Notes under the pieces: generated by a model | Told to the model about the DNA's origin: nothing | Seen by the model: the letters and a program-made list of their open reading frames with translations, nothing else | Database searches by the model: none | From: Martelella sp. HB161492 | GTDB lineage: Bacteria; Pseudomonadota; Alphaproteobacteria; Rhizobiales; Rhizobiaceae | Direction: 5' to 3' | Length of the DNA: 64,000 nucleotides | NCBI RefSeq assembly: GCF_013184775.1 | Contig: NZ_JAATVV010000003.1 | Span: 1 to 64,000, forward strand | Made by a program: the position numbers and the translations under genes | Part shown: piece after piece, positions 8,373-42,343 of the stretch | Layout: each line of letters begins with the position of its first letter | Position numbering within the stretch: the stretch's first letter is position 1

Positions 8373-8426
8373 GCCTTCATTTGGCATATCAGGCGATCAC
8401 GGCCACAGGCCGCCATAGCGAAACAG

Positions 8427-9780: not shown

Positions 9781-9867
9781 TCCCGTATGTAGTGCTTTTG
9801 GTCACCACGGAGAAATGGTACATCAAGGAATTCCAGCCAGTCCTCTCCGGCCATCATGGTACGTTGC

Positions 9868-12823: not shown

Positions 12824-12868
12824 TGGCGTCCTGCTCCAAGTTTGATACAGAAGCGCTCTTATAAAACA

Positions 12869-12883: not shown

Positions 12884-12938
12884 ACTTATATCTTTTAGAG
12901 TGATTCCAAACAGTTAGCAGTGGAGCAGGGACAAGCAA

Positions 12939-13733: not shown

Positions 13734-13816
13734 CCTTGTCAGGTCAATGGCTGGTCGCGATTGCTGACATGCCGGCACGGGAAGATGGACCGGATGGCTG
13801 ACGGGGATCGCCGCTA

Positions 13817-14857: not shown

Positions 14858-15102
14858 GAATGTTGTCCTGAAAATCGTGTCGGGAGGGCCGGGAATGCTG
14901 AGCCCGAAGAGGATGTCCCTTTATGAGCCCCGCTTTGGTGGAGAACAAATGCAAAGCCTGCATAGGGCCTGCAAAAAACGGAATTGGTCAGTCCTGTCCT
15001 GCACTGATAACAGCATGCCTGGCCGTTTGCCAAAAAAATATGCAGCCCGCCTCGGCGGCGATGTTGGCACCGGCAATACAGGATTGAAAGGGAACAAGAC
15101 AG

Positions 15103-17708: not shown

Positions 17709-17709
17709 C

Positions 17710-18609: not shown

Positions 18610-18611
18610 TC

Positions 18612-19442: not shown

Positions 19443-20200
19443 TCGACATTGCTATCGACAACCTGCGCATCGCCTTTTCCGGACGAGAGGTGGTGAAGGG
19501 CGTTTCCTTCCATGTCGAGGCCGGCGGCAGTTTCGGCATCGTCGGCGAAAGCGGCTCGGGCAAATCCACCGTTCTGCGCGCTTTGGCTGGTCTCAATGAC
19601 GACTGGCAGGGGCGGATTTCCTTTGGCGGCAGCGCCGTCGGGGCAAAGCGCGACCGCGCCTTTTTCCGCAAGGTGCAGATGGTGTTCCAGGACCCTTATG
19701 GCTCGCTGCATCCGCGCCAGACGATCGATCGCATCCTGAGCGAGTTGCCGCTGGTTCACGGCATGGACCGGATCGACCAGCGCATTGCCAGTGCGCTTGA
19801 CGATGTTGCCCTGCCGCAATCGGTCCGGTTCCGTTTTCCGCATCAGCTTTCCGGTGGCCAGCGCCAGCGCGTCGCGATTGCCCGCGCCCTGATTGCCGAG
19901 CCTGAGGTGCTGTTGCTCGACGAGCCGACGTCGGCGCTCGATGTTTCGGTGCAGGCAGAAATTCTCAATCTGCTTGTGGCGCTGCGCCGCGAGCATAATC
20001 TCACCTATGTCATGGTCAGCCATAATCTGGCGGTCGTTGCGCATATGTGTGCCAATGTCGGCGTCATGCTGGGTGGCGAGATGGTGGAGCAGGTGACGGC
20101 AGAAAAATTGCGTCTCGGCGATGTCTCTCACGCGCATACGAAAGAATTGCGGGCGCTCAGTATTGAGCTGGAAGAACCGGAGACGGATGTTTTGCCCTGA
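19439..20200 (+). CDS. Peptide-type ABC transporter ATPase (DppF-like)
   Basis: A 253-residue ATPase, partner of the preceding one. It has Walker [10 protein letters not shown], the signature [15 protein letters not shown] and Walker [17 protein letters not shown] 19439 overlaps the preceding stop; a GTG at 19430 is a weaker alternative. It completes the five-gene importer and is followed at once by the D-aminopeptidase gene, whose start lies 33 bases downstream on the same strand. Confidence 0.92.
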   Translation: MIDIAIDNLRIAFSGREVVKGVSFHVEAGGSFGIVGESGSGKSTVLRALAGLNDDWQGRISFGGSAVGAKRDRAFFRKVQMVFQDPYGSLHPRQTIDRILSELPLVHGMDRIDQRIASALDDVALPQSVRFRFPHQLSGGQRQRVAIARALIAEPEVLLLDEPTSALDVSVQAEILNLLVALRREHNLTYVMVSHNLAVVAHMCANVGVMLGGEMVEQVTAEKLRLGDVSHAHTKELRALSIELEEPETDVLP

Positions 20201-20232
20201 AACGGGCCTTGGCAATAGCAGGATATAAGGAC

Positions 20233-29891: not shown

Positions 29892-30827
29892 ATGTCGGAT
29901 GACTGGGCGATCGCGCTGCACGGCGGCGCCGGCACGATTTTGAAAGAGACGATGACACCGGAAAGGGAGGCGGCCTACCGCCAGGGGCTCGAGGCAGCCC
30001 TTGCTGCCGGTCGCGCCGTGCTTGAGGCAGGCGGTGCTGCCGAAGATGCGGTCGAGGCAAGCGTGATCGCGCTGGAGGACGATCCGCTCTTCAATGCCGG
30101 GCGGGGAGCCGTCCTGACGGCCGATGGCGGCTTCGAGCTTGATTCCGCCATCATGCGCGGACACGACCTGGCCGTGGGCGCGGTCTTTTCCGTGTGTGAT
30201 GTGGCCAATCCCATCAGGCTGGCGCGCCTGGTGATGGATTACTCGCCGCATGTGGCCTTTTGCGGTGAAGGCGCATCGCGCTTTGCCCGTGCCGGTGGGT
30301 TGCCTGCTGTACCGCCCGCCTATTTCGAGACCGCGCATCGGCGGCAGCAACTGGAAAAGGCCCGCGCCGCCAATGTGATTTCGCTTGATCACAATGACAA
30401 CAAGTTCGGCACCGTTGGTGCGGTTGCGCGCGACGCCAGGGGCAATCTCGCTGCGGCGACCTCCACCGGGGGCATGACCAACAAGGCTGTGGGGCGGATC
30501 GGCGATAGTCCGGTCATTGGCGCAGGCACCTATGCCAGCAATGCGTCCTGCGCCGTTTCGGCAACCGGGCATGGCGAATTGTTCATCCGCCTGACGGTCG
30601 CCCGTGATATTGCCGCCATGATGGAATATGGCGGCCTATCGCTGATCGAGGCGTCGCGGCGCAAGGTGCTGGTTGAACTGGCTACACTCGAAGCCGAGAG
30701 TGGCGGGATCATTGCGGTCGGCAGAACGGGCGATCCGGTTCTCGTCTTCAATTCCGCCGGCATGTACCGCGCCGCGCAGAGTGCCGGCGGAGAGCCCGTT
30801 ATTGCCATCTACCGCGACGGCGACTGA
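29892..30827 (+). CDS. iaaA: Isoaspartyl peptidase / L-asparaginase (Ntn hydrolase)
   Basis: A 311-residue plant-type asparaginase precursor. It would cleave itself before Thr174 in KFGTVGAVARD, giving an alpha and a beta chain, with Thr174 as N-terminal nucleophile. The opening IALHGGAG and the GAGTYASNASCAVSATGHGELFIR loop are diagnostic. The family removes beta-aspartyl residues from peptides and hydrolyses asparagine; relatives cleave GlcNAc-asparagine. In rhizobia and enterics the gene often lies before a peptide ABC importer, as here (binding protein starts 433 bases on). GGTG/AAGGC is a weak Shine-Dalgarno. Confidence 0.9.
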   Translation: MSDDWAIALHGGAGTILKETMTPEREAAYRQGLEAALAAGRAVLEAGGAAEDAVEASVIALEDDPLFNAGRGAVLTADGGFELDSAIMRGHDLAVGAVFSVCDVANPIRLARLVMDYSPHVAFCGEGASRFARAGGLPAVPPAYFETAHRRQQLEKARAANVISLDHNDNKFGTVGAVARDARGNLAAATSTGGMTNKAVGRIGDSPVIGAGTYASNASCAVSATGHGELFIRLTVARDIAAMMEYGGLSLIEASRRKVLVELATLEAESGGIIAVGRTGDPVLVFNSAGMYRAAQSAGGEPVIAIYRDGD

Positions 30828-31043
30828 TCGGGGAACTGATTTTCATCTGGGCAAAATGGCGAAGCTGCCGGCATTCTGCCGGCGGTCGTTTCCGCCTCGT
30901 AGCTGGCGGTACCGGCGATGGCCTGGCCACACATCTGCTGCTGCAAGCCTATGTTCCAGCCCATATGCGCCCCGAATGCCTTTGGTTGTCGGGGGCTGCC
31001 GTCAAACGTCGCGGCGCCAGGAAATCATAAATAACGACATAAA

Positions 31044-31057
31044 ATCAATATATTGAT
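31044..31057. promoter_or_regulatory. Perfect 14-bp palindrome ATCAATATATTGAT
   Basis: ATCAATATATTGAT is identical to its reverse complement. It lies about 200 bases before the binding-protein start in an AT-rich stretch, followed by TGATC-containing sequence. This suits a regulator site or an upstream promoter region, but no regulator is identified. Confidence 0.35.
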
Positions 31058-31209
31058 CATTTTCATCAATGTGATCCAGCGATCCTTCGACCGTGTCGGG
31101 CCACCGGCGCGGCAGCTTTTCTGCGCGCCTCGGCAATTGCAGCGGCCCAGCTTTGTCGCTGTTCGGAACCGCATGGGACTTGACACCGCAGACCAATTTA
31201 CCTTTAATG

Positions 31210-31225
31210 ACGTAATAATGATCTA
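31210..31225 (+). promoter_or_regulatory. Candidate IclR operator, copy 1
   Basis: The sequence ACGTAATAATGATCTA ends 35 bases before the binding-protein ATG. It matches the iclR/SelA-side sequence ACGTTATTATGATATA at 13 of 16 positions by eye, and some similarity continues for seven more bases. A near-palindrome, TGATCTATAGTTCA, overlaps its right end. Regulation by the cluster's IclR protein is inferred. Confidence 0.45.
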
Positions 31226-31260
31226 TAGTTCATAACTGTGGAATAAGTAAGGGAACTCAA

Positions 31261-32784
31261 ATGCTGAAGAGACTGCTTCTGGCAGCGACCTGCATGGCGC
31301 TGCCGCTCGTACCCATGGCTGCAAACGCGTCTGGAATCATTGATGTCGCGACGATCGGCGAGCCGCCGACCCTCGATCCGATGGCTTCGACTGCCGATGT
31401 TGTCGGCATGACGACGCAGCATATTTTTGAAACGCTTTTCACCTATGACGATCAGTGGAATGTCGTGCCACTTCTGGCCGAGACCATGCCGGAGATTTCC
31501 GGTGACGGCACGATCTACGACATCAAGCTCCGCGACAATGTCCCCTTCCATGACGGCACGATCATGGATTCGAGCGATGTGGTTGCCTGCATTGAGCGCT
31601 GGATGGATATCGCATCGCGCGGCAAGCAGGCGGCTCCCTATATCAAGAGCGTGACGGCAACGGGCGATGACACGATCCGTATCGAGCTCAACAAGCCCTA
31701 TGCTCCGCTTCTGTCGCTGCTCGCCTTCAACAATTCGGCCGCCGTCATCATGCCGAAGGAAGATCTGGCCGAGCCGTTGACCAAGTTCATCGGCACGGGC
31801 CCCTATATGCTCAAGGATCACAAGGCCGACCAGTATATCCAGCTTGTCCGCTTCGATGATTATGCAGCCCGCAGCGAGCCGGCCAGCGGCTTTGGCGGCA
31901 AGCGCGAAGCGATCCTCGACGAGATCCGTTTTGTTCCGGTCGCCGACGCCAATACGCGTCTTGAAGGCATTTCCTCGGGCCAGTTCGACTATGCCGACTC
32001 GCTGCCGACGGAAAGCTATGACCGCCTCGAAAAGTCCGACAAGGCGCTTCCGGTTATCCTGGCGCCCTATGGCGCGCCCGTCTTCGTGATGAACACGAAG
32101 GAAGGCATGATGACCAACAAGGAAATCCGCCACGCCGTGCAGGAAGCGCTCAATCCGGAAGACATGCTGCTCGCCGCTTTCGGCGACAAGCGCTTCTTCG
32201 CCGTCGACGGCTCGCTTTATCCGGAAGGCTATGTCTGGCACACCGACAAGGGCGTCGAACGCTATGGCGACGGCGACCCGGAAGCGGCTGCCAAGATGCT
32301 GAAAGAGGCCGGTTATGATGGCAGCACGCTGCGCATCCTCACCAGCCGCCAGTATGAGTTTCATTACAAGATGGCTCAGGTTGCCGCCGAATATCTGAAG
32401 GCTGCCGGTTTCAAGGTCGATCTGGAAGTCTATGACTGGGCAACGCTGACCCAGCGCCGTGCCGATCCGGGTCTTTGGGATATCTTCATCACCCATGGTC
32501 CGTTCCCGGCAGAGCCGGCGCTCAATGGCTGGATGTCTGATGATTATCCGGGCTGGTGGGCATCTGCCGAAAAGCATGCCGTTACCGATCCCTTCCTGGC
32601 GGAATCCGATCCGGCCAAGCGCAAGGAACTTTTCGGCGAGGTTCAGGCCGCATTCTATGATGATGCGCCGGTCTTCAAGGTCGGTGACTTCAATTCGCTG
32701 AGCGGTGAAGCCAAGACGCTGGAAGACTTCAACCCGTCGCCCTGGCCTTATTTCTGGAATGTCAGCACCGAAAACGGCAAGTGA
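31261..32784 (+). CDS. Peptide-type ABC transporter binding protein (family 5)
   Basis: A 507-residue DppA/OppA-like binding protein with a Sec signal peptide (MLKRLLLAATCMALPLVPMAANA). Family 5 motifs are clear: EPPTLDPMASTADVVGMTTQHIFETLF and the FHDGTIMDSSDVVA segment. Family members carry not only peptides but also oligosaccharides, opines and nickel, so the name does not fix the cargo. The cluster encodes a GH1 enzyme and a deacetylase, hinting at a glycoside or amino sugar. A hairpin after the stop probably raises its message relative to the permeases. Confidence 0.92.
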   Translation: MLKRLLLAATCMALPLVPMAANASGIIDVATIGEPPTLDPMASTADVVGMTTQHIFETLFTYDDQWNVVPLLAETMPEISGDGTIYDIKLRDNVPFHDGTIMDSSDVVACIERWMDIASRGKQAAPYIKSVTATGDDTIRIELNKPYAPLLSLLAFNNSAAVIMPKEDLAEPLTKFIGTGPYMLKDHKADQYIQLVRFDDYAARSEPASGFGGKREAILDEIRFVPVADANTRLEGISSGQFDYADSLPTESYDRLEKSDKALPVILAPYGAPVFVMNTKEGMMTNKEIRHAVQEALNPEDMLLAAFGDKRFFAVDGSLYPEGYVWHTDKGVERYGDGDPEAAAKMLKEAGYDGSTLRILTSRQYEFHYKMAQVAAEYLKAAGFKVDLEVYDWATLTQRRADPGLWDIFITHGPFPAEPALNGWMSDDYPGWWASAEKHAVTDPFLAESDPAKRKELFGEVQAAFYDDAPVFKVGDFNSLSGEAKTLEDFNPSPWPYFWNVSTENGK

Positions 32785-32811
32785 GCCGTTTCGGATCTGA
32801 AGATCAAGTTT

Positions 32812-32835
32812 CCGGCGCCCCTTTCGGGGCGTCGG
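32812..32835 (+). terminator. Intercistronic hairpin after the binding-protein gene
   Basis: CCGGCGCCCC and GGGGCGTCGG form a 10-bp stem with one G-U pair around a TTTC loop, 28 bases after the stop. A pyrimidine run ending in TTTT follows about ten bases later. Partial termination or 3'-end protection of the binding-protein message is likely, with read-through into the GH1 gene. Confidence 0.55.
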
Positions 32836-32931
32836 TCTCACCCCCCTTTTCAATAGTGTGCATTCCGGCCCGGCCTGTCGCCGCAGTTCTGCGGCGGATG
32901 GCGTCTAGCGGCTGCTGACGGATCGTGATCG

Positions 32932-34260
32932 ATGGTGCGTAAATTTCCGCGTGATTTTCTCTGGGGTGTCGCGGCCTCTGCCTACCAGACCGAAGGAGCA
33001 ACCGAGACAGACGGTCGCGGGATGAGCGTCTGGGATGCCTACGCCAAGGTTCCGGGCAATATCGTCAATGGTGATACCGCCGATATCGCCTGCGATCACT
33101 ATCATCGCTATCCCGAGGATATCGCGCTGATGCGCGGCCTTGGCGTCAGCGCCTACCGGCTTTCGATCGCCTGGCCGCGGATTTTCCCCGATGGCAGGGG
33201 CAAGGTGAACGCACGCGGTCTCGATTTCTATGACCGGCTGATCGATCTGATGCTGCATGAGGGGATCGAGCCCTGGATCTGCCTGCATCACTGGGACATG
33301 CCGGTTGCCATCGAGGCGGAGGGCGGCTGGCGCTCGCGCGATACGGCCAGCATCTTTGGCGATTATGCCGCCGAGGTGGCGCGGCATTTTGCTGACAGGG
33401 TCAAGCGCTTTGCGCCGATCAACGAGCCCAATGTCATTCCCTGGGTTGCCTATAATCTTGGCCGTCATGCGCCGGGCAAGCAGAGTTACGAAGCCTGCCT
33501 GCAATCGATTCACAATCTCAATCTCGCCCATGGCAAAACGGTCAGCGCCGTCCGCGCCGAAGCGCCGGGCGCAGAAATCGGCAATATCGTCTCGCTTGGT
33601 CCGGTGCGTCCGCATTATGACGACGCGGCACATGAAGAGGCGCGCGTCTTCGGTGACTGCATCTGGCGGCGGGTGATGGTCGATCCGCTCTGGCTCGGCA
33701 AGTATCCTGAACCGCTCGCCGAAAAGATCGCGCCGCTGATCAGGCCCGGCGACATGGAGGAAATCAGCCAGAAGCTCGATTTCTTCGGTCTCAACCACTA
33801 CAACCCAGTCTTCGTCGCGCCCAATCCGAACGCGACTCTTGGCTATTCGGAGGTGATGCCGCCGTCCGGCATGGGCCCGCTCACCGATGTCAACTGGGTC
33901 GTTGACCCGATGGCCTTCCTCGAGCAGATCCGCGACACCTCCAACCGCTATGGCCGGCCGCCGATCTATATCACTGAAAATGGCGCCTCCTATCCCGATG
34001 CCTTGCGGCCTGATCGCACGGTCCTCGACCAGGAGCGGATTTCCTATTTCAGCCAGTATCTCGGCGCGCTGCTGGATGCCCTTGATGAGGGGCATGATGT
34101 GCGCGGCTATTTCGCCTGGTCGCTGATGGACAATTTCGAGTGGGGACGCGGTTTCTCCAAGCGTTTCGGCCTCGTCTATGTCGACTACCCGACGCTGCAA
34201 CGCATCCCCAAGGCTTCCTATCACTGGCTGGCCGGGGTCATCGCTGACAATGCGCTGTGA
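32932..34260 (+). CDS. Beta-glycosidase, glycoside hydrolase family 1
   Basis: A 442-residue GH1 enzyme, the usual length for bacterial beta-glucosidases. It begins with FPRDFLWGVAASAYQTEGA; acid/base Glu165 lies in PINEPNV, nucleophile Glu349 in YITENGAS, and the FAWSLMDNFEWGRGFSKRFGLVYVD aglycone region is intact. No phosphate-binding signature of 6-phospho-glycosidases is evident, and no signal peptide, so it hydrolyses an unphosphorylated beta-glycoside in the cytoplasm. A GH1 gene placed inside a Dpp-type importer operon, between binding protein and permeases, is unusual and suggests that the imported molecule is glycosylated. Confidence 0.92.
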   Translation: MVRKFPRDFLWGVAASAYQTEGATETDGRGMSVWDAYAKVPGNIVNGDTADIACDHYHRYPEDIALMRGLGVSAYRLSIAWPRIFPDGRGKVNARGLDFYDRLIDLMLHEGIEPWICLHHWDMPVAIEAEGGWRSRDTASIFGDYAAEVARHFADRVKRFAPINEPNVIPWVAYNLGRHAPGKQSYEACLQSIHNLNLAHGKTVSAVRAEAPGAEIGNIVSLGPVRPHYDDAAHEEARVFGDCIWRRVMVDPLWLGKYPEPLAEKIAPLIRPGDMEEISQKLDFFGLNHYNPVFVAPNPNATLGYSEVMPPSGMGPLTDVNWVVDPMAFLEQIRDTSNRYGRPPIYITENGASYPDALRPDRTVLDQERISYFSQYLGALLDALDEGHDVRGYFAWSLMDNFEWGRGFSKRFGLVYVDYPTLQRIPKASYHWLAGVIADNAL

Positions 34261-34326
34261 CGACCTTCATCAAGGATACGGGCCGCTTGTGATGCGTGCG
34301 GCCCGCCGAAACGGAAAGATCTGCCC

Positions 34327-35268
34327 ATGATCCGATATATTCTCAAGCGCCTGGTCGGAATGGTCGTCGTGATGTTCCTGGTGGTGACGATCGTCTTCAT
34401 CATCGTGCGCGTCACGCCCGGCGATCCGGCCGCCGTGATGCTGGGGCCGGATGCGACGCCGCAGGATATCGCCGAGCTTAGGACCAAGCTCGGTCTCGAT
34501 CAGTCGATCCTGCAGCAATATGTGCTCTATATCGTCAGCATGCTGCATGGTGATCTCGGCCGGTCAATCTTCCTCAATATTCCGGTGACGACGGCGCTCG
34601 CCCAGCGCGCCGAGCCGACCTTTTTCCTGACCCTGTTCTCCCTCATTCTGGCGTCTGTCATTGCCCTTCCGGTCGGCATTTATGCGGCTTACCGGCGTGG
34701 TTCTTTCATCGACCAGGCCTCGACCGTGATTGCCATGACGGCGGCGAGCGTGCCGAGCTTCTGGCTTGGTCTGATCCTGATCCAGGTCTTTGCCGTGCGC
34801 TTCGGTGTCTTTCCCGTGTCGGGCTATGGCGGGCCGGATGCCAGTTTCGCCGACCGTCTGCACCATCTCATCTTGCCGGCGGTATCGCTCGGCGTGGTTT
34901 CATCGGCGCTGATCCTGCGGTTCACCCGTGCGGCAATGCTCGATGTCTTCAATGACGACTATATCCGCACCGCCCGCGCCAAGGGGCTTTCGGAAGGCAA
35001 GGTCGTGCTGAAACATGCGCTGAAGAACGCGCTGATCCCGATCCTCACCGTTCTCGGGCTGACGGCTGCCGTGCTGGTGGCCGGTGCGGTGGTGACCGAA
35101 ACCGTGTTCGCGCTTCCCGGCGTCGGCAGTCTGGTGGTTTCTGCCGTGCTCAGGCGTGATTATCCGGTGATCCAGGGCGCACTTCTGGTGATTGCCGGGC
35201 TCTATGTTCTCATCAATTTCGCAATCGACATGCTTTATCTGCTCGTCGACCCGAGGGTTCGCTACTGA
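34327..35268 (+). CDS. Peptide-type ABC transporter permease (DppB-like)
   Basis: A 313-residue inner-membrane permease. Helix 1 is VGMVVVMFLVVTIVFIIVRVTPGDP, followed by AAVMLGPDATPQDIAELRTKLGLD, both typical of DppB. The EAA loop is YIRTARAKGLSEGKVVLKHALKNALIPI, and the ending AIDMLYLLVDPRVRY is standard. The stop overlaps the start of the next permease (TGATG). Confidence 0.93.
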   Translation: MIRYILKRLVGMVVVMFLVVTIVFIIVRVTPGDPAAVMLGPDATPQDIAELRTKLGLDQSILQQYVLYIVSMLHGDLGRSIFLNIPVTTALAQRAEPTFFLTLFSLILASVIALPVGIYAAYRRGSFIDQASTVIAMTAASVPSFWLGLILIQVFAVRFGVFPVSGYGGPDASFADRLHHLILPAVSLGVVSSALILRFTRAAMLDVFNDDYIRTARAKGLSEGKVVLKHALKNALIPILTVLGLTAAVLVAGAVVTETVFALPGVGSLVVSAVLRRDYPVIQGALLVIAGLYVLINFAIDMLYLLVDPRVRY

Positions 35269-36131
35269 TGGCCGATATTCAGACAGCCGGCAGCGACCGG
35301 ACCAAATTCATCAAACAGCTGTTCAGGCGCAGAAGTGTTGCGGTCGGGCTGATCATTCTGGCGATCTTCATCCTGCTCGCCGTGTTTGCACCATGGGTGA
35401 CGCCGTTTTCGCCCTCCAAGCTTTCAATCGCCAACCGGCTGAAGCCGCCGAGTGAGCTGCACTGGTTCGGTACGGACGAATTCGGCCGCGATGTCTTCAC
35501 CCGAACCATTTTCGCCGGCCGGCTTTCTTTGCTCGTCGGGGCCTGTGTCGTGGTTCTGTCTTCGCTGGTCGGCGTGACGCTTGGTCTGCTGGCTGGGTTC
35601 TTCAAGCGGCTCGATACGCCGATTGCCCGGCTGATCGATGCGATGATGGCTTTCCCGGACATTCTGCTGGCGATTGCGCTGGTCGCAGCCCTCGGGCCCT
35701 CGCTGATGACCGTCATCATTGCGCTGTCGATCGTCTACGCGCCGCGTCTTGCCCGCATCGTCCGTGCATCGACACTGGTGCTGCGCGAACTGCCCTTTGT
35801 CGAAGCGGCAGAGGCGATGGGTATCTCCACCAGCCACATCATGACCCGGCATGTGCTGCGCAATCTCGTTTCGCCGATCCTGGTGCAGGCTACCTTCCTG
35901 TTTGCCAATGCCATCCTGGCTGAAGCGGGTCTTTCCTTCCTCGGCCTTGGCGTCAGCCCGGAAGTGCCGACCTGGGGCACGATGATCTCTGCGGGACGCC
36001 AGTATCTCGGTTCTGCCGACTGGATGACGTTCTTTCCCGGTGTGGCGATCATCCTGGCCGTTCTTTCTCTTCAAATCGTCGGCGACGGTCTGCGCGATAT
36101 GCTCGATCCCCGGCTCAAAAAGGACCTCTGA
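35268..36131 (+). CDS. Peptide-type ABC transporter permease (DppC-like)
   Basis: A 287-residue inner-membrane permease. The first helix is AVGLIILAIFILLAVFAPWV, then the HWFGTDEFGRDVFTRTIFAGRLSL motif of DppC proteins. The EAA region is FVEAAEAMGISTSHIMTRHVLRNLVSPI, and the C-terminus VGDGLRDMLDPRLKKDL is typical. It is followed after two bases by the amidohydrolase gene, so import and catabolism are co-transcribed. Confidence 0.93.
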   Translation: MADIQTAGSDRTKFIKQLFRRRSVAVGLIILAIFILLAVFAPWVTPFSPSKLSIANRLKPPSELHWFGTDEFGRDVFTRTIFAGRLSLLVGACVVVLSSLVGVTLGLLAGFFKRLDTPIARLIDAMMAFPDILLAIALVAALGPSLMTVIIALSIVYAPRLARIVRASTLVLRELPFVEAAEAMGISTSHIMTRHVLRNLVSPILVQATFLFANAILAEAGLSFLGLGVSPEVPTWGTMISAGRQYLGSADWMTFFPGVAIILAVLSLQIVGDGLRDMLDPRLKKDL

Positions 36132-36133
36132 AA

Positions 36134-37342
36134 ATGCCTGCTGAACTGAATGGTTCACCTCTTCTGATCCGCAATGTCCGTCCAGTCGCCTTCGGCCGTG
36201 ACACGCCGGACGGGCAGATCGATATCGCCATCGGCGCCGATGGCAGGATTGCCGCGACCGGGCGCGGCCTGCCGGTGACCGAAGGTGCGGAGGTGATTGA
36301 TGGGGCCGGGGCCTTTATCTCGCCGGGCTGGACCGATCTCCACGTCCATATCTGGCATGGCGGCACGGATATTTCGATCCGGCCGTCGCAATGCGGCGTC
36401 GAGCGCGGCGTCACCACGCTCGTCGATGCGGGTTCGGCGGGTGAGGCCAATTTTCACGGCTTTCGCGAATATATCATCGAACCGTCGGTCGAACGGATCA
36501 AGGCCTTCCTCAATCTCGGTTCCATCGGTCTTGTCGCCTGCAACCGCGTGCCGGAACTCAGGGATATCAAGGATGTCGATTTCGATCGGATCGTGCAATG
36601 CTATGAGGAAAACCGCGACCACATCATCGGCATCAAGGTGCGCGCCAGCCACGTGATCACGGGGTCCTGGGGCATCACGCCGGTCAAGCTCGGCAAGAAG
36701 ATCGCCAAGATCCTGAAGCTGCCGATGATGGTGCATGTCGGCGAGCCGCCGGCGCTTTACGAGGATGTTCTCGACGTGCTCGGCCCCGGCGACATCATCA
36801 CCCATTGCTTCAATGGCAAGCTCGGCTCCTCGATCATGGAAGACGAGGATCTGTTCAATCTCGCCGAACGCTGCGCCGGCGAGGGCGTCCGGCTTGATAT
36901 CGGCCATGGCGGTGCGTCCTTCTCCTTCAAGGTGGCCGAAGCTGCCATTGAGCGCGGGCTGATGCCGTTCTCGATCTCCACAGATCTGCATGGTCATTCG
37001 CTGAACGGTGCCGTCTGGGATATGGCGACCACCATGTCGAAGCTTCTGTCTGTCGGCATGCCGTTCGAGAAGGTGATTGAAGCCGTCACCCATGCACCGG
37101 CTCAGGTGATCGGGCTGCCGATGGATGATTTGCTGAAACCCGGTGCGCGCGCCGAATTTACGGTCTTCAGCCTGCTCGATGAGCCGCTGGATGTGGTCGA
37201 TTCCAATGGGGATCCGGCGCATATGACCCGGCTCTTTGATCCCGAATATGCGGTGATCGGCACCCACGCCGTCAAGGCTTCGCGGCACACGCCCGGCACC
37301 TGGCGCGCTGGCTATAACGGACAGAATTACGCATTCCGCTGA
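36134..37342 (+). CDS. Amidohydrolase/deacetylase-type metallohydrolase
   Basis: A 402-residue amidohydrolase-superfamily enzyme of the dihydroorotase-like branch often annotated amidohydrolase/deacetylase. The metal site can be traced: His70-x-His72 (TDLHVHIWHGG), probable carboxylated Lys168 (GIKVRAS), His201 (VHVGEPP), His224 (THCFNGK) and Asp284 (STDLHGHS). Relatives sit beside SelA-like ammonia-lyases of the DgaE type, as here, and some deacetylate N-acetyl compounds. I infer N-deacylation of the imported substrate, producing a free amine for the PLP enzyme. An imidase or dihydroorotase-like ring-opening reaction is the alternative. Confidence 0.82.
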   Translation: MPAELNGSPLLIRNVRPVAFGRDTPDGQIDIAIGADGRIAATGRGLPVTEGAEVIDGAGAFISPGWTDLHVHIWHGGTDISIRPSQCGVERGVTTLVDAGSAGEANFHGFREYIIEPSVERIKAFLNLGSIGLVACNRVPELRDIKDVDFDRIVQCYEENRDHIIGIKVRASHVITGSWGITPVKLGKKIAKILKLPMMVHVGEPPALYEDVLDVLGPGDIITHCFNGKLGSSIMEDEDLFNLAERCAGEGVRLDIGHGGASFSFKVAEAAIERGLMPFSISTDLHGHSLNGAVWDMATTMSKLLSVGMPFEKVIEAVTHAPAQVIGLPMDDLLKPGARAEFTVFSLLDEPLDVVDSNGDPAHMTRLFDPEYAVIGTHAVKASRHTPGTWRAGYNGQNYAFR

Positions 37343-37373
37343 TTGCGCGCGCGATCGGGCGAAGGAAATTGAA

Positions 37374-37886
37374 ATGACAGGAGCATTTGTGTCCCACACG
37401 TCTGAAATGGAAAAGATGCAGGCACCGTCGGTTGCCACACGACTGCAAGAGCTCGGTATCGAACTGCCGCCGCCGCCGCCGCCGATTGCCAATTTTGCCG
37501 CCTTCAAGCAGGAGGGCAACATGCTCTATCTCTCCGGCCAGGGGCCGAGCGAGAAGGATGGGTCGCAGCATTACGGCAAGGTGGGGGCCGAGGTCAGCGT
37601 TGAAGATGCCTATCAGCATGCCCGGCTTACCGGGCTCAACCTTCTGGCCGTGATGCAGGATGCGGTCGGTGATCTCGACCGGATCAAGCATATCGTCAAG
37701 ATCCTCGGCATGGTCAATGCGAGCCCGGATTTCACCGCGCATCCGAGCGTCATCAATGGCTGTTCGGATCTCTTCGTTTCCGTGTTCGGCGAGAACGGTA
37801 TTCATGCCCGTTCCGCCGTCGGTCTCGGTTCACTGCCGAACAACATCACGGTTGAGATCGAAGCCATCGTGGCGCTGAAGGATTGA
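37374..37886 (+). CDS. RidA-family enamine/imine deaminase
   Basis: A 170-residue Rid-family protein, longer than the usual 128 residues because of an N-terminal extension. It keeps Arg146 in HARSAVGLGSLP and the acidic pair in VEIEAIVAL, the residues expected of an active deaminase. RidA hydrolyses reactive enamines and imines released by PLP enzymes, giving a keto acid and ammonia. That is a fitting partner for the SelA-like protein of this cluster. Residues 32-37 are six consecutive prolines, which may require EF-P for translation. AAGGAAATTGAA precedes the ATG. The gene ends two bases from the convergent iclR gene. Confidence 0.87.
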   Translation: MTGAFVSHTSEMEKMQAPSVATRLQELGIELPPPPPPIANFAAFKQEGNMLYLSGQGPSEKDGSQHYGKVGAEVSVEDAYQHARLTGLNLLAVMQDAVGDLDRIKHIVKILGMVNASPDFTAHPSVINGCSDLFVSVFGENGIHARSAVGLGSLPNNITVEIEAIVALKD

Positions 37887-37888
37887 GA

Positions 37889-38692
37889 TCAATGCGAGTG
37901 CCAGCCCATCAACGTCTCGATATGCGCCGCAGACTGGCGGACGAAGTCGCCATAGGGCTGCTCGCCGGATGTCGCCTTGTGCTCGGGCAGAACGATGGAG
38001 ATCGTGGCAACGCATTCGCCTTCGGTGTTGAGAATGGGCGAGGCGATGCAGGCAACGGCATAATCGGATTCGCCGACCTGTACCGAAAGCCGCTTCTCAA
38101 AGGCTTCACCCGCCGCCTTCGAAAGGTCCACCGGGTCAATCGCGGCGCGGCCGGTCGGCGAGGCACGTGCGCCGCGTTTGAAGAGCTCGATCCGGTCCTT
38201 GTCGGGCATATGGCCGACGAGCAGCCGTCCCGACGCCGTCCAGTTGAGCGGAATGCGCGAACCAACACGCGACATGACCTGAAAATGGCTTGGGCCATCC
38301 GCCATGGCCATCACCAGCATATGGTGGCCGTCGCGGCCGCAAAGCTGCACCGTTTCGGCGGCACGGCGGCAAAGATCGTGCATTTCCTGGGTGGCAACGC
38401 GCATGAAATCGACCGACCGGGCATAGGCGATGCCGTAATTGTAAAGCCGCGGCCCCAGCCACAGCGTGCCGTCGCTGGCACGCGTCAGAATGGTCTTCTC
38501 AACGAGGTCGTCAACAATCGTGTAAACGGTGGAAAGCGGCGCCTTGATCCCCTTGGCAATCGCATAGCCGCCCGCCGGCTCGCCGGTTTCATAGAGGAAA
38601 TCGATGATCTGCAGCACGCGGTCAATACCGCTGACACGGCTGCGCTTGGCTTTGGTTTCGCTCGTTTTGGTTTCTTCAGCGCTATCGGTCAT
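37889..38692 (-). CDS. IclR-family transcriptional regulator
   Basis: A 267-residue IclR regulator. The winged helix spans about residues 20-85 (GIDRVLQIIDFLYETGEPAGGYAIAKGIKAPLSTVYTIVDDLVEK in pieces), and a GAF-like effector domain follows (VQLCGRDGHHMLVMA, LNWTASGRLLVGHM, VACIASPILNTEGECVATISIVLP). It lies inside the catabolic cluster on the opposite strand, divergent from the SelA-like gene, so it very likely controls the cluster in response to its substrate or an intermediate. A shared AT-rich motif in both cluster promoters supports this. Confidence 0.9.
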   Translation of the reverse strand: MTDSAEETKTSETKAKRSRVSGIDRVLQIIDFLYETGEPAGGYAIAKGIKAPLSTVYTIVDDLVEKTILTRASDGTLWLGPRLYNYGIAYARSVDFMRVATQEMHDLCRRAAETVQLCGRDGHHMLVMAMADGPSHFQVMSRVGSRIPLNWTASGRLLVGHMPDKDRIELFKRGARASPTGRAAIDPVDLSKAAGEAFEKRLSVQVGESDYAVACIASPILNTEGECVATISIVLPEHKATSGEQPYGDFVRQSAAHIETLMGWHSH

Positions 38693-38731
38693 GACTTCAG
38701 CTTTGGCTATTCCTGATCTTTGAGTGTTGTT

Positions 38732-38747
38732 ACGTTATTATGATATA
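38732..38747 (+). promoter_or_regulatory. Candidate IclR operator, copy 2
   Basis: ACGTTATTATGATATA lies in the 102-base divergent region, 39 bases from the iclR start and 47 bases from the SelA-like start. It resembles the sequence at 31210-31225 before the binding-protein gene. A single IclR site here could govern both its own gene and the SelA-like/ATPase genes. Confidence 0.45.
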
Positions 38748-38794
38748 CATGTCGAGTTGCAAAGGGTGCTTCCGGCATTTTCTAGGAGAATGAC

Positions 38795-39991
38795 ATGAGT
38801 GAGGATATTCGTCCGTCGCTTGGCTTGAGACCGGTGATCAATGTCTCGGGAACGATGACGAGCCTTGGCGCCTCGATTGCCGTGCCGGAGGCGGTGGCTG
38901 CCGTTCAGAAGATCATGCCGCAATTCGTGGAGATGAATGATCTCCAGCGCAAGGCGGGTGACATCATTGCCCGGCTGACCGGTGCGGAAGCCGGTTTCAT
39001 CACGGCATCCTGTTCATCCGGCATCTCGCTCGCCGTTGCCGGTACCATTACCGGCACGGATCTTCTGGCGGTTGAACGCCTGCCCGAGGTCCGGATCGCC
39101 AAGAAAGAGGTTCTGGTGCAGGTCGGCCATATGGTCAATTACGGCGCGCCGGTTGATCAGGCGATCCGGCTTGCCGGTGCCACCGTCGTGCCGATCGGTC
39201 AGGCGACCTCGACCCATCGGTTCCATCTTGAAAATGCGATCACCGAAAACACCGCTGCCGCGGTCTATGTCGTCTCCCACCACGTGGTCGATTATGGCCT
39301 GCTGCACCTTTCCGAATTCGTCGAGATCTGCCATGCGCGCGGGGTTCCGGTGATTGTCGATGCCGCGTCGGAATATGATCTGCGCGGCTTTCTGGAAACC
39401 GGGGCGGATATTGCGCTTTATTCCGGACACAAGTTTCTCGGCGGTCCCACATCGGGCATCGTCGCCGGCAAAAAGGAACTGGTGCGTCACGCCTATCTGC
39501 AAAATCTCGGTATCGGCCGGGGCATGAAGGTCGGCAAGGAAAGCATCTTCGGCGTCATGGCGGCGCTTGAAGCCTGGGAAACCCGCGATCATGAGGGTAT
39601 CCGAGCGCGCGAGGCGGGCTATCTCGATCTCTGGAAGGCGACATTGTCTGGCCGTCTCGGCGTCAATCCGGTGATCGATCCCGATCCGACCAACAACCCG
39701 CTCGACCGGCTGAAAGTGATCATCGATCCGGCGGAGGCGCGCATCACCGCCTGGGATCTGGCGGCCGCACTGGCGGCGGGCGATCCGCCGATCATCGTCC
39801 GTGATCACGAGGCGGAGCATCACTATTTCTATCTTGATCCCTGCAATCTTCACCCAGGGCAGGAAGCGATCGTGGCCCGCCGTCTCGGCGAAGAGCTCGA
39901 CAAGGCGCAACGTTCCAACGCGATCATCGCCACGCCGATCGAGGAGCTGAGCCGCCATCGTTTCGATGGCCTGCTGAGCTGGCCGGACTGA
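38795..39991 (+). CDS. SelA-like PLP-dependent enzyme (DgaE-type ammonia-lyase candidate)
   Basis: A 398-residue fold-type I PLP enzyme related to selenocysteine synthase SelA. The Schiff-base lysine is Lys213 in [17 protein letters not shown], the ring-binding Asp is Asp189 in [12 protein letters not shown], and [13 protein letters not shown] forms the phosphate loop. No selB, selD or tRNA-Sec gene is present and the protein lacks the SelA N-terminal domain, so selenium use is unlikely. Related proteins eliminate ammonia from 2-amino-3-hydroxy acids such as D-glucosaminate 6-phosphate. A RidA gene in the cluster supports an elimination that releases an enamine. It is divergent from iclR and is followed by the transporter ATPase gene. 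Confidence 0.83.
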
Positions 39992-40036
39992 CCGGCAGGC
40001 ACAGTCAACAAGACAAGGACAAAAGGGGATATCGCC

Positions 40037-41869
40037 ATGACCAGCCATGAAACCGCAAGACTGTCGGAACCTGTTCTGTCGGTTGAGAAGCTGACCACGT
40101 CCTTCTATGCCGATGGTGCATGGAACAGCGTCGTGCGCGATGTCTCCTTTGATGTCCTGCCCGGTGAAACGCTGGCCATTGTCGGCGAGAGCGGCTCGGG
40201 AAAAAGCGTCACCTCGTTGTCGATCATGGGGCTCCTGCCGCGTGATACGGCGAAGGTGACCGGCAGCATCATGCTGGGCGGGCGCAATCTTCTTGCGCTT
40301 TCCGACCGAGAGATGCGGGCAGTGCGTGGCGCCGACGTCTCGATGATCTTTCAGGAGCCGATGACCAGCCTCAATCCGCTGTTCACGATCGGAGACCAGA
40401 TCCTAGAAGCGATCCGTTGCCACTCCGGAATTTCGAGGAAGGACGCGCGGCTGGAAACGATCCGGCTTCTGGAGAAGGTGCGCATCCCCTCGGCGGCATC
40501 GCGTTTTGATGAATATCCGCATCGTTTTTCCGGCGGCATGCGTCAGCGCGCGATGATTGCCATGGCGCTGGCGGCCAAGCCGAAGCTGCTGATTGCCGAT
40601 GAGCCGACGACGGCGCTCGACGTTACCATTCAGGGGCAGATCCTCGATCTCATCAAGACGCTGCAGGATGAGGAGGGGACTTCGGTGCTGTTCATCACCC
40701 ATGATATGGGTGTGGTCGCCGAGGTGGCGGACCGCACCGTCGTTATGTTTCGCGGTGAGCAGATCGAGACAGGCCGAACGGCGGATATCTTTGCCAAAAG
40801 CGTTGAACCTTACACGCGGGCGCTGCTGTCTGCGGTTCCCGTTCTCGGGTCGATGAAGGGATCGGCGCTGCCAGCGCGGTTTCCGATCATGGATGTCAAA
40901 AGCGGCGAGACAGAAGAGGCACGTGAGACCAGCGATACGGTGAAGCGTGATGACGAGCCGGTGCTTGAGGTCAGGAATCTGACCAAGCGGTTCGATATCC
41001 ATTCAGGCCTGCTGTCGCGGCTGACGGGTCGCGTCCATGCGGTGGAAGATGTCTCCTTCAAGCTTCATGCCGGTGAGACCCTGTCGCTTGTGGGTGAGAG
41101 CGGTTGTGGCAAATCGACAACCGGCCGTGCCGTGATGCGGCTGATCGAGCCGGATGGCGGTGAGGTTCTGGTCAATGGTGAAAGCGTGCTCGGCTATGGG
41201 CGCGGCGAGATGCGCAAGCTGCGCCAGTCGGTGCAGATGATCTTCCAGGATCCTTTCGCCAGCCTGAACCCGCGCATGACCGTCGGCGAGGCCGTGGCCG
41301 AACCCTATCTCGAGCACAAAATGGGGACACGAGCCCAGGCGCGCGACAAGACGGCCGAAATTCTCGAAAAGGTCGGCCTGTCTGCCGATATGGCCAAACG
41401 GTTTCCGCACGAATTCTCCGGCGGCCAGCGCCAGCGTATCTGTATCGCCCGCGCATTGATGCTCGATCCCAAGGTCATCATCGCTGACGAGAGTGTTTCG
41501 GCACTCGACGTGTCGATCAAGGCACAGGTGATCAATCTGATGCTGGATCTTCAGGAGAGCATGAATATCGCCTTTTTGTTCATCTCGCATGATATGGCGG
41601 TGGTGGAGCGGCTCAGCCATCAGGTGGCCGTCATGTATCTCGGCGAGATTGTCGAGATCGGCCCACGGGACATGGTGTTTTCCAACCCGCAGCATCCCTA
41701 TACGCGCAAGCTGATGGAGGCGGTTCCGATCCCCGATCCCGCCCGTCTCGGCATGCGGCGTGGCGGCCAGGCGGAAGAGCTCAAAAGCCCGATCCGTCCG
41801 CTCGATTTTGCCGCGCGCACGCGCATCTATCATGAGGTTGCGCCGGGGCATCTCTGCCTCAGCGACTGA
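40037..41869 (+). CDS. Peptide-type ABC transporter ATPase, fused DppD-DppF
   Basis: A 610-residue protein with two complete ATPase cassettes in one chain. The N-terminal half has Walker [11 protein letters not shown], the signature FSGGMRQRAMIAMAL and Walker [14 protein letters not shown]. The C-terminal half has GESGCGKSTT, FSGGQRQRICIARAL and VIIADESVSALDV. A linker of about 60 residues near 275-335 joins them. It supplies both ATP-binding subunits for the permeases encoded at 34327-36131. Although separated from them by the regulator and PLP genes, no other ATPase for that importer is nearby. GGGG precedes ATG 40037. Confidence 0.93.
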   Translation: MTSHETARLSEPVLSVEKLTTSFYADGAWNSVVRDVSFDVLPGETLAIVGESGSGKSVTSLSIMGLLPRDTAKVTGSIMLGGRNLLALSDREMRAVRGADVSMIFQEPMTSLNPLFTIGDQILEAIRCHSGISRKDARLETIRLLEKVRIPSAASRFDEYPHRFSGGMRQRAMIAMALAAKPKLLIADEPTTALDVTIQGQILDLIKTLQDEEGTSVLFITHDMGVVAEVADRTVVMFRGEQIETGRTADIFAKSVEPYTRALLSAVPVLGSMKGSALPARFPIMDVKSGETEEARETSDTVKRDDEPVLEVRNLTKRFDIHSGLLSRLTGRVHAVEDVSFKLHAGETLSLVGESGCGKSTTGRAVMRLIEPDGGEVLVNGESVLGYGRGEMRKLRQSVQMIFQDPFASLNPRMTVGEAVAEPYLEHKMGTRAQARDKTAEILEKVGLSADMAKRFPHEFSGGQRQRICIARALMLDPKVIIADESVSALDVSIKAQVINLMLDLQESMNIAFLFISHDMAVVERLSHQVAVMYLGEIVEIGPRDMVFSNPQHPYTRKLMEAVPIPDPARLGMRRGGQAEELKSPIRPLDFAARTRIYHEVAPGHLCLSD

Positions 41870-42343
41870 CGTTCTCGGCAGGCGTTCCGGCACAGTTGTC
41901 CGCGCGATGAAGGCAGGAATGGGCGGTTCACGGCACACGTAATGCCGCTTGACGGGCGCCGGATCCCGCCTGGAACGGTCTGCCCTTGCCGCGGGTCCGA
42001 CACTCTGCAACTCCTGCCCTGGCTGCTCATGCGCATATCAGCTTTGCGCCGGCGGTTTCAGGCAGCGCATTATCCCGTGTATTCACAAGACCATCCTCGT
42101 GCCGGCGCACAGTATTGCTTTGTCTTACATTTTCGGCGACTGTTGCACTCATGCCCGGTTGGGTCCATTAAGATTGTTTTTGATTGGACTGTCAGGGGAA
42201 AACTCTTTATACGAGCGCCTAAATCGCGTTCGCGTTTTCTTGGGTGAAACTTTTTTCTCTCAAAGAAAAGCCTAGATTTCCTGAGATGAAATAAACCTCG
42301 GGCACAAGGCAGGTCTATCAAAGATTTGTGTGGAATTGCGTGG
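41870..42343. other. Intergenic region before the surface-glycan genes
   Basis: No gene was recognised here. GC content drops in the second half (from about 42150), which has several A/T runs, in contrast with the flanking coding DNA. This may be the promoter of the glycosyltransferase gene or a boundary of an acquired glycan patch. Short frames in the stretch have no ribosome binding site or recognisable similarity. Confidence 0.5.

What the first reader, a model, noticed from the sequence alone, without database searches (positions are those of the whole stretch)
29892..41869. Possible uncharacterised catabolic route: importer, GH1 glycosidase, deacetylase, SelA-like lyase and RidA under one IclR
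Seen: a Dpp-type importer shares its cluster with a GH1 glycosidase, a dihydroorotase-like amidohydrolase, RidA, a SelA-like PLP enzyme and IclR. Known: DgaE-type SelA relatives eliminate ammonia from 2-amino-3-hydroxy acids, and RidA hydrolyses the enamines such enzymes release. Inference: a glycosylated, N-acylated amino sugar acid (for example N-acetylglucosaminate from oxidised chitin) is imported, deglycosylated, deacylated and deaminated to a keto-deoxy acid. The keto-deoxy sugar kinase and aldolase would be encoded elsewhere. The preceding Ntn hydrolase could alternatively indicate GlcNAc-asparagine or isoaspartyl peptides.
Basis: partly seen in the sequence, partly recalled or inferred. 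Interest (0 to 1): 0.8.

Follow-up and report, generated by a model that had tools for sequence, protein, structure and literature searches.

The report
Rhizobial amino-sugar-acid catabolic operon
A set of bacterial genes, shared by many root-associated bacteria, appears to import an acylated amino-sugar acid, strip off the acyl group and remove its nitrogen, using partly different enzymes from a comparable route already proven in marine bacteria.

Summary
Observation confirmed. A Martelella cluster encodes a family-5 binding protein (SBP), GH1, DppB/C, a COG3964 amidohydrolase, RidA, IclR, a DgaE-like PLP lyase and fused DppDF.

It is conserved: SelA-like and RidA genes accompany 60 of the 80 best amidohydrolase loci. 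A palindromic motif lies before SBP and between IclR and SelA, and also before the amidohydrolase where the operon has split (22 of 23 loci without SelA, 20 of 21 distinct sequences).

Best reading: a non-phosphorylated route for an N-acylated 2-amino-2-deoxy-aldonate, most likely N-acetyl-D-glucosaminate: import, deacylation, deamination to 2-keto-3-deoxygluconate. Sister loci carry GntP permeases, KDGP aldolases or glucose dehydrogenase. The lyase keeps DgaE's catalytic residues, but one of three phosphate-site arginines is Cys in 69 of 69 clade rows.

A proven pathway of the same logic exists (Ong, PMC9537276), so this is a new variant of a known kind.

GH1 is an accessory that travels with its own SBP. 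The Ntn hydrolase is probably not part. An AA10 LPMO was found in 1 of 199 family genomes, not this one, so self-made oxidised chitin is unlikely. No substrate has been tested.

The parts
31225..31246 (+). Operator-like imperfect palindrome just before the SBP gene
   Evidence: PWM 16.5, second-best non-overlapping place in the 64-kb window, the best outside the cluster being 10.3; one of only two places in the 5.28-Mb genome matching the two-site pattern at <=1 mismatch (the pattern was written from these two sites)
31261..32784 (+). Family-5 solute-binding protein of the importer, GH1-paired type
   Evidence: PF00496; SBP tree: 12 GH1-paired SBPs on one side of one branch, support 93
32932..34260 (+). 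GH1 beta-glucosidase-like hydrolase, no obvious signal peptide by eye (accessory member)
   Evidence: TIGR03356 549 bits, cut-off 478.5; INEP at 163 and ITENG at 347; 8 of 80 named loci
34327..35268 (+). DppB-type permease
   Evidence: PF00528/PF19300
35268..36131 (+). DppC-type permease
   Evidence: PF00528/PF12911
36134..37342 (+). COG3964-type metallo-amidohydrolase, proposed N-acyl-aminoaldonate deacylase
   Evidence: NF006689 444.9 bits, cut-off 371; 73% identity over 394 aa to PDB 2OGJ; H70 H72 K168 H201 H224 D284 invariant in 17 sequences
37374..37886 (+). RidA-family protein, proposed imine/enamine hydrolase for the lyase product
   Evidence: PF14588/PF01042 above cut-off, TIGR00004 below; within 8 kb of SelA in 23 of 29 loci
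37889..38692 (-). IclR-family regulator
   Evidence: PF01614; 73 of 80 AHS loci
38727..38748 (+). Operator-like imperfect palindrome in the divergent IclR/SelA intergenic region
   Evidence: PWM 28.3, best place in the window (this site type trained the PWM)
38795..39991 (+). DgaE-like PLP ammonia-lyase (SelA family), proposed D-glucosaminate ammonia-lyase acting without phosphorylation
   Evidence: PF03841; TIGR01437 318.6 bits (cut-off 385.3), NF047797 285.9 (cut-off 600); 7LC0 E=1e-74; H162, H163, K213 kept, R346 position Cys
40037..41869 (+). Fused DppD-DppF ATPase of the importer
   Evidence: two ABC_tran and two oligo_HPY stretches
29892..30827 (+). Asparaginase_2 (isoaspartyl peptidase-like) Ntn hydrolase: neighbour, judged probably NOT part of the system
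   Evidence: PF01112; no full-length copy at this place in 163 other loci, a 36-residue match in M. alba; 433 nt before SBP, upstream of the operator-like site

Best explanation
The cluster is an IclR-controlled catabolic regulon for an N-acylated 2-amino-2-deoxy-aldonic acid, most likely N-acetyl-D-glucosaminate (GlcNAc1A) or a close relative. The Dpp-type ABC importer brings it in. In the GH1-bearing version a dedicated binding protein is thought to admit a beta-glycoside, which GH1 cleaves in the cytoplasm. The COG3964 amidohydrolase removes the acyl group. The DgaE-like PLP enzyme eliminates water and ammonia from the free, unphosphorylated amino acid. RidA clears the imine or enamine, giving 2-keto-3-deoxygluconate, which a KDG kinase and KDPG aldolase encoded elsewhere would feed into the Entner-Doudoroff route. 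Shown here: gene families, conservation, shared operator-like motif, residue signature, SBP-GH1 cassette behaviour. Inferred: substrate identity, every enzyme activity, direction of transport, binding by IclR.
For: Linkage: 60 of 80, 25 of 28, including Rhodobacterales. AHS with IclR only in 19 of 80; the motif lies upstream of AHS in 22 of 23 loci without SelA (20 of 21 distinct sequences), which argues for one regulon. Substrate hints from sister loci: Burkholderiales orthologues (60-62%) sit as RidA-IclR-SelA-porin-GntP gluconate-type permease in 4 of 4 loci examined (two of them one species), no deacylase found. Priestia has AHS-DgaE-KDGP aldolase-PfkB kinase-GntP. Of six DgaE-type loci, six carry KDGP aldolase, five AHS, none a RidA found with the window's RidA as query. 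Halorussus has a SelA-like gene with PIG-L deacetylase, glucose 1-dehydrogenase and Rid. Natrarchaeobius chitin clusters have DGA, IclR and RutC (passages of PMC12343721). Residues: the window lyase keeps H162, H163, K213, R301 and R332; in 69 of 69 clade rows R346 is Cys and R297 Asn (H163 kept in 66), both Arg in 8 of 8 DgaE-type rows; R346 is one of three arginines near the docked phosphate (PMC9529869). Precedent: OngB deacetylates GlcNAc1A, OngC deaminates GlcN1A to KDG, RidA (OngD) is needed for growth on GlcNAc1A (PMC9537276).
Against: No activity or growth data. R301 and R332, two of the three phosphate-site arginines, are retained. The residue split coincides with one deep split in the family, so it is one event and not independent evidence. 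Relatives pair SelA-RidA with a different importer and no deacylase (L040, L044-L046; amino-acid type in L044, the one scanned) or with an M81 peptidase (L048), and L055-L059 have neither RidA nor AHS, so the lyase's amino acid could differ. Dpp importers are mostly known for peptides or opines (general knowledge). The motif search found no further site in this genome, so no kinase or aldolase in the regulon by that test, and the best KdgK candidate is below its cut-off (233 of 400 bits). No AA10 LPMO in this genome. OngB has little or no activity on N-acetyl-D-serine, whereas Atu3266, the 2OGJ protein, as recalled (Ornelas 2013, not read) was weak on N-acetyl-D-serine and best on acetyl-(R)-mandelate, an ester.
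Confidence: 0.62

Rival explanations
1. Same chemistry, different substrate: an N-acyl (or N-aminoacyl) D-serine, D-threonine or other small D-beta-hydroxy amino acid is imported, deacylated and dehydrated to a keto acid; the cluster salvages D-amino acid conjugates.
For: Importer of the Dpp type; relatives with another importer (SBP_bac_3, amino-acid type, in L044) and no deacylase; OngC, which acts on GlcN1A, also deaminates D-serine and D-threonine (PMC9537276 section 13); recalled weak N-acetyl-D-serine activity of Atu3266.
Against: GntP permease beside the lyase in 4 of 4 Burkholderiales loci examined; sugar-acid enzymes in the sister DgaE loci; a GH1 glycosidase kept in several genera.
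Confidence: 0.22
2. The amidohydrolase is really an esterase or deacylase for alpha-acyloxy acids (as in the recalled acetyl-(R)-mandelate activity of Atu3266), and the PLP enzyme handles an unrelated amine released from the same conjugate.
For: Window enzyme is 73% identical to 2OGJ, and loci 97-98% identical to 2OGJ sit in the same operon (L185, L198, L097).
Against: The strong AHS-RidA-SelA linkage and the sister AHS-DgaE-aldolase clusters make sequential steps on one molecule the simpler reading; esters are often faster substrates than the matching amides (general chemistry).
Confidence: 0.08
3. GlcNAc-asparagine or isoaspartyl-peptide catabolism led by the Ntn hydrolase at 29892-30827.
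For: Ntn hydrolase adjacent in the window; M. alba keeps a 36-residue match at the same place; one distant locus, L048, has an Asparaginase_2 gene with ROK kinase and a NagA-like gene near SelA.
Against: No full-length copy before SBP in the other loci scanned (163 loci, some with little room upstream); it lies upstream of the operator-like site. A partial remnant in M. alba fits loss, that is, dispensability.
Confidence: 0.03

Closest known systems
Ong oxidative chitin pathway, Pseudoalteromonas prydzensis (PMC9537276: outline, abstract, passages, sections 13 and 17 seen)
   Same: Importer, glycosidase, GlcNAc1A deacetylase, PLP deaminase giving KDG without prior phosphorylation, linked RidA, dedicated regulator
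   Different: Ong uses an SSS transporter, GH20, a D-aminoacylase-type OngB, a fold-type III OngC, RpiR, and KdgK in the cluster; section 17 reports Gammaproteobacteria and one Betaproteobacterium. Here: Dpp ABC importer, GH1, COG3964 amidohydrolase, SelA-family lyase, IclR, no kinase in the cluster.
Dga pathway of Salmonella (DgaABCD PTS, DgaE lyase, DgaF aldolase; PMC9529869 parts 1 and 2 of 3 seen)
   Same: Homologous PLP lyase; catalytic K213, H162 and H163 kept
   Different: DgaE acts on the 6-phosphate after PTS uptake; here no PTS or aldolase in the cluster, R346 is Cys and R297 is Asn, and RidA is present
EF_0837-type clusters (AHS + DgaE + KDGP aldolase) of Enterococcus, Priestia, Klebsiella, Bartonella
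   Same: COG3964-type amidohydrolase next to a DgaE-family lyase
   Different: They carry aldolase, and a kinase, PTS component or DUF431x-type set; no RidA or Dpp importer found with the window proteins as queries
Atu3266 (PDB 2OGJ; name recalled) of Agrobacterium
   Same: Amidohydrolase 73% identical; loci 97-98% identical to 2OGJ lie in the same operon
   Different: Studied as an isolated enzyme (recalled, Ornelas 2013); one search found no paper in the held library with the name Atu3266
Predicted GlcNAc route in Natrarchaeobius (PMC12343721, passages seen)
   Same: SelA-like 'DGA', IclR and a RutC/Rid protein in one cluster
   Different: Archaeal, in silico only; deacetylation precedes oxidation by glucose dehydrogenase; the two haloarchaeal SelA-like rows I checked (other genera) lack H162/H163 in my alignment and have Met at the R346 position

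Membership tests
[quoted passage not shown]
   Kept in the window sequence; histidine roles from PMC9529869, which numbers the lysine 217; K213 is its place in the 7LC0 chain
[quoted passage not shown]
   R301 and R332 kept as R305 and R336; R346 is C350
[quoted passage not shown]
   285.9 and 318.6 bits
[quoted passage not shown]
   None in the window cluster; KDGP aldolase in 6 of 6 DgaE-type loci
Ong pathway | Fold-type III PLP deaminase OngC | tested here: not met
   The window lyase is PF03841 SelA family, related to 7LC0
Ong pathway | Deacetylase of the D-aminoacylase type (OngB) | not tested
   The window enzyme meets NF006689; no direct comparison with OngB was run
Ong pathway | Linked RidA protein | tested here: met
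   Gene at 37374-37886; 60 of 80 AHS loci
Ong pathway | AA10 LPMO in the genome | tested here: not met
   PF03067: none in G000, 1 of 199 family genomes
Ong pathway | Activity on GlcNAc1A and GlcN1A | not testable with these tools
   Needs assay
COG3964 / EF_0837-like amidohydrolases | NF006689 curated cut-off | tested here: met
   444.9 against 371 bits; the related TIGR03583 EF_0837 is below its cut-off, 298.4 against 432.15
COG3964 / EF_0837-like amidohydrolases | Metal-site residues (assignment recalled) | tested here: met
   H70 H72 K168 H201 H224 D284 invariant in 17 sequences
GH1 beta-glucosidase | TIGR03356 cut-off and catalytic Glu motifs (motifs recalled) | tested here: met
   549 against 478.5 bits; INEP 163, ITENG 347
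RidA | Pfam family match and catalytic Arg (recalled) | tested here: met
   PF14588 72.8 (cut-off 35) and PF01042 47.3 (cut-off 27.3) bits; ARS with R146
RidA | NCBIfam TIGR00004 cut-off (core Rid subfamily) | tested here: not met
   33 bits against 106.25: a divergent member of the wider family

The most novel reading that the evidence does not exclude
Hyphomicrobiales and other Proteobacteria hold an independently assembled counterpart of the Ong route, built from the Dga lyase after it lost dependence on the 6-phosphate. A mobile binding-protein plus GH1 cassette retunes the shared importer from the free N-acyl-aminoaldonate to a beta-glycoside of it. The pool fed on may not be LPMO-made chitin products, since an AA10 LPMO was found in only 1 of 199 family genomes; oxidised amino-sugar acids such as the 2-aminogluconate of rhizobial lipid A (recalled; not examined here) would be a new nutrient source.
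Probability: 0.3. Interest if true: 0.78.

Novelty: new variant of a known kind. Interest (0 to 1): 0.62.

Why it matters
It proposes a physiological job for an orphan enzyme family with a solved structure (2OGJ) and for a widespread operon whose lyase is annotated in public records as a selenium transferase or class V aminotransferase. It would show that oxidised amino-sugar acids are used by root-associated Alphaproteobacteria through enzymes unrelated in part to the marine ones, and it gives a residue-level prediction (Cys for Arg346) about loss of phosphate dependence. The SBP-GH1 cassette suggests how an importer's diet can be changed while keeping the pathway behind it.

Tried and rejected
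Rejected, with one reservation: membership of the Ntn hydrolase. No other locus has a full-length copy before SBP, but M. alba has a 36-residue match there. My first count used an 8-kb limit too short to reach that gene, so only bears on it, in support. Rejected: GH1 as a random insertion. It sits between SBP and DppB in Martelella, Allorhizobium terrae, Agrobacterium vitis and G358, and next to an extra SBP in Pseudorhizobium and Shinella. Rejected: DgaE membership. Weakened: own-LPMO oxidised chitin as the source.

Led nowhere or little: generic promoter and terminator scans were no better than shuffles (3 found against a mean of 3.8; 7 against 8.8). A repeat search found nothing in the IclR-SelA gap; the motif emerged only by comparing relatives. 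A Priestia kinase query found only weak hits in this genome. Literature searches for Atu3266/EF0837/cog3964 (one listing with one mention of cog3964), glucosaminate with Rhizobiales/Agrobacterium/RidA (listing only) and the mandelate work (listing only) showed no study of this operon in the held library; that is no proof that none exists. LpxQ/aminogluconate papers were seen only as a listing. No structure prediction was run.

Limits. Of 82 IclR-SelA intergenic regions, 69 matched the seed well enough on the plus strand; their 44 distinct sites trained the PWM, the window's possibly among them, and 13 regions were dropped. The SBP-upstream and AHS-upstream sites were not used in training. In the control, 12 of 306 random 400-bp chunks scored >=12, and all 12 overlap the SBP-upstream, intergenic or AHS-upstream regions themselves. 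Six of 108 SBP-upstream regions scored under 10: L131, L054, L208, L212, L126, L112. Trees are 'quick' trees with SH-aLRT support only and long-branch warnings, on 50 loci that I chose out of 164 with hits, not a random draw. The GH1 label was fixed from gene maps, but identities had been seen before the trees. L022, L060 and L061 (contig fragments) were left out of the 29-locus count; L055 fell out of the residue table. Some genomes appear twice, as G-handle loci and as named loci: L087/L137, L088/L139 and L090/L138 (Martelella), L117/L159 and L118/L188, L104/L215. The first three were single in the trees and motif set. L121 and L122 are two contigs of one genome. L197's GH1 is in three tblastn pieces, so its position was set by hand for the SBP tree label.

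Full report
WHAT IS THERE. The window lies on contig C23 of a 5.28-Mb genome. Its closest named relative is Martelella alba, 94-99% identical over the shared cluster genes, so I take the genus to be Martelella. Order: SBP, GH1, DppB, DppC, amidohydrolase (AHS), RidA, IclR (minus strand), SelA-like lyase, fused DppDF. Gaps run from -1 to 147 nt.

CONSERVATION. Three surveys. (a) SelA-like protein over 297 genomes of the order: of the 29 loci with >=49% identity that I mapped, RidA lies within 8 kb in 23, IclR in 17, AHS in 14, GH1 in 0. (b) AHS in the family: 28 mapped loci with AHS >=50%; SelA and RidA present in 25, IclR in 27. Of the three without SelA, two (L117, L118) are split operons and one (L121) ends at a contig edge. 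(c) AHS alignment against named genomes: the best 80 of 445 relatives were kept, mostly close kin; SelA and RidA in 60, IclR in 73, GH1 in 8. Of the 20 without SelA, 19 show only AHS and IclR, all in Rhizobium. In two such genomes, G023 and G281, I mapped both pieces: the SBP-DppBC-RidA-SelA-ABC block lies elsewhere (the same block in R. etli plasmids). The set also occurs in Aminobacter, Phyllobacterium and the rhodobacterial Sagittula. Loci 97-98% identical to the PDB protein 2OGJ (Atu3266, name recalled) sit inside the same operon.

THE NTN HYDROLASE. It ends 433 nt before SBP. A lenient search of 163 loci found no full-length copy before SBP: M. alba has a 36-residue match (61%) there, and L048 a 29%-identical homologue in another place. 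Room upstream of SBP is 1.3-1.5 kb in L088, L092, L093 and L095, enough for only part or barely all of the gene. I judge it a neighbour that is dispensable at best.

REGULATION. Comparing the IclR-SelA intergenic regions of relatives showed a conserved imperfect palindrome of the form CTATTACATTATTATGGCATAG. A weight matrix from 44 distinct intergenic sites (69 of 82 regions; 13 dropped) scores >=12 upstream of SBP in 100 of 108 loci (99 of 107 distinct sequences) and upstream of AHS in 22 of 23 loci without SelA (20 of 21 distinct). Random 400-bp chunks have a median of -8.6 and a 95th percentile of 5.9; 12 of 306 reach 12, and all 12 overlap the true regions. In this window the two best non-overlapping places are 38727-38748 (28.3) and 31225-31246 (16.5); the best place outside the cluster scores 10.3. 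A degenerate pattern written from these two finds no other place in the genome at <=1 mismatch, so any KDG kinase or aldolase used is not in this regulon by that test. That IclR binds here is inference.

THE LYASE. It is homologous to DgaE (7LC0, E=1e-74) but below the curated cut-offs. PMC9529869 (parts 1 and 2 of 3 read) names H163 as proton donor, H162 as neighbour, and R301, R332 and R346 as the cluster near the docked phosphate. The window protein keeps H162, H163, K213, R301 and R332; R346 is Cys and R297 is Asn. In 69 distinct clade rows (the window, five named relatives and the mapped loci with identity >=49%) Cys and Asn stand there in 69 of 69; H162, K213, R301 and R332 are kept in 69, H163 in 66. 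The eight DgaE-type rows (Salmonella, 8T7J, Klebsiella, Priestia, Bartonella, Enterococcus, Lacticaseibacillus, Niallia; I do not know the gene context of 8T7J) have Arg at both. Two haloarchaeal rows have Met at R346. This fits an unphosphorylated substrate. It is one evolutionary split, two of three arginines remain, and so it is suggestive rather than proof.

SUBSTRATE CLUES FROM CONTEXT. DgaE-type loci: KDGP aldolase in 6 of 6, AHS in 5 of 6, RidA found in 0 of 6; Priestia adds a PfkB kinase and a GntP permease. Burkholderiales orthologues of the window lyase (60-62%): RidA-IclR-SelA-porin-GntP in 4 of 4 loci examined (Paraburkholderia largidicola, two P. caribensis, Caballeronia), no AHS found, which reads as direct uptake of a gluconate-like amino acid. 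Halorussus: an ABC importer with two permeases and two ATPases, MR/MLE enzyme, PIG-L deacetylase, SelA-like, glucose 1-dehydrogenase, Rid. Natrarchaeobius chitin clusters hold a putative lyase, IclR and RutC with a GDH route, proposed in silico by its authors (passages of PMC12343721). Against a single substrate: L040 and L044-L046 pair RidA-SelA with an importer that in L044, the one scanned, has a family-3 (amino-acid-type) binding protein, and no AHS; L048 has an M81 peptidase in place of AHS, near ROK, Asparaginase_2 and NagA-like genes; L055-L059 have neither RidA nor AHS.

PRECEDENT. In PMC9537276 (outline, passages, sections 13 and 17) GlcNAc1A is deacetylated by OngB, deaminated to KDG by the fold-type III enzyme OngC and phosphorylated by KdgK; deleting the RidA gene ongD abolished growth on GlcNAc1A, its role unknown. 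The survey there reports Gammaproteobacteria and one Betaproteobacterium. PMC12017989 (abstract and passages) treats OngB evolution; a term search in it found no mention of SelA, DgaE, Rhizobi-, Alphaproteobacteria or dihydroorotase. The window operon matches this pathway step by step with a different lyase fold family, importer type and regulator, and, by family assignment only, a different deacylase.

THE GH1 CASSETTE. GH1 occurs in the six Martelella-type genomes mapped (window included), Allorhizobium terrae, Agrobacterium vitis (2), Pseudorhizobium pelagicum, Shinella and G358. In Pseudorhizobium and Shinella there are two SBPs: the one beside GH1 and a second one. In the SBP tree (52 rows) all 12 GH1-paired SBPs fall on one side of one branch (SH-aLRT 93; 1 change, shuffled mean about 11), and the two second SBPs fall among the common ones. 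In the SelA, AHS and DppB trees the same loci need 5, 5 and 3 changes (starred branches alone force 2, 4 and 2), and holding them together is rejected (AU p 0.0001, 0.0004, 0.018). So SBP and GH1 move or persist together, apart from the rest. I infer that GH1 acts on what that SBP delivers. GH1 scores as a beta-glucosidase, and most of its nearest solved structures are named beta-glucosidases or beta-glycosidases, so a beta-N-acetylglucosaminide is not the obvious substrate. The genome has one further GH1.

SOURCE AND DOWNSTREAM. No AA10 LPMO in this genome and 1 of 199 in the family; one weak GH18 match. If the substrate is GlcNAc1A, it is likely made by others or comes from another pool. Eda is present above cut-off. 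Of ten PfkB-family places, one has KdgK as best NCBIfam match, 233 bits against a cut-off of 400.

RECALLED, NOT READ. Ornelas et al. 2013 on Atu3266: best on acetyl-(R)-mandelate, weak on N-acetyl-D-serine. By standard stereochemistry these share the alpha-carbon configuration of D-glucosaminate. This is a lead, not a test.

OPEN PUZZLE. The lyase keeps H163, which in DgaE is said to avoid enamine release, yet RidA is linked to this clade and was not found beside the DgaE-type loci. Why RidA is needed is unexplained, as it is in the Ong paper.

VERDICT. A real, conserved and, by motif, co-regulated gene set; chemistry well supported by homology; substrate likely but untested; new variant of a known kind.

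Noticed in passing
L119 (G000:C51), 8490-10929: A second, 35%-identical COG3964-type amidohydrolase in the same genome sits between a RidA-family gene and a CutC-family gene, with no SelA-like gene mapped nearby.
   Followed up: partly
L048 7305-10489 and 16552-19559: M81 (MlrC-type) peptidase, RidA and the SelA-like lyase in a row, close to ROK kinase, Asparaginase_2 and a NagA-like gene: a possible further variant with a different acyl hydrolase.
   Followed up: partly
L132 (Mesorhizobium plasmid) 5942-20814: A distant SelA-like enzyme with ABC importer genes, two M81 peptidases, an enolase-superfamily 'dipeptide epimerase' and MmgE/PrpD: another uncharacterised catabolic cluster.
   Followed up: no
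L040, L044, L045, L046: RidA-SelA operons with a different ABC importer (amino-acid type where scanned, L044), a divergent IclR and no amidohydrolase.
   Followed up: partly
L127, L217, L218: The SFCGS/DUF4312/DUF4311/DUF4310 gene set lies with PRD-domain regulators and AHS-DgaE in all three; possibly an uncharacterised transporter for an acylated amino-sugar acid.
   Followed up: no
L137 4381-4488 (M. alba): A 36-residue match to the window's Ntn hydrolase upstream of SBP, perhaps a remnant of a lost gene.
   Followed up: no
window 42326-44128: A protein joining DUF4422 and glycosyltransferase family 8 lies just downstream of the operon.
   Followed up: no
L197 about 5011-6334: The Shinella GH1 appears in three tblastn pieces, so it may be broken or carry sequencing errors.
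   Followed up: no
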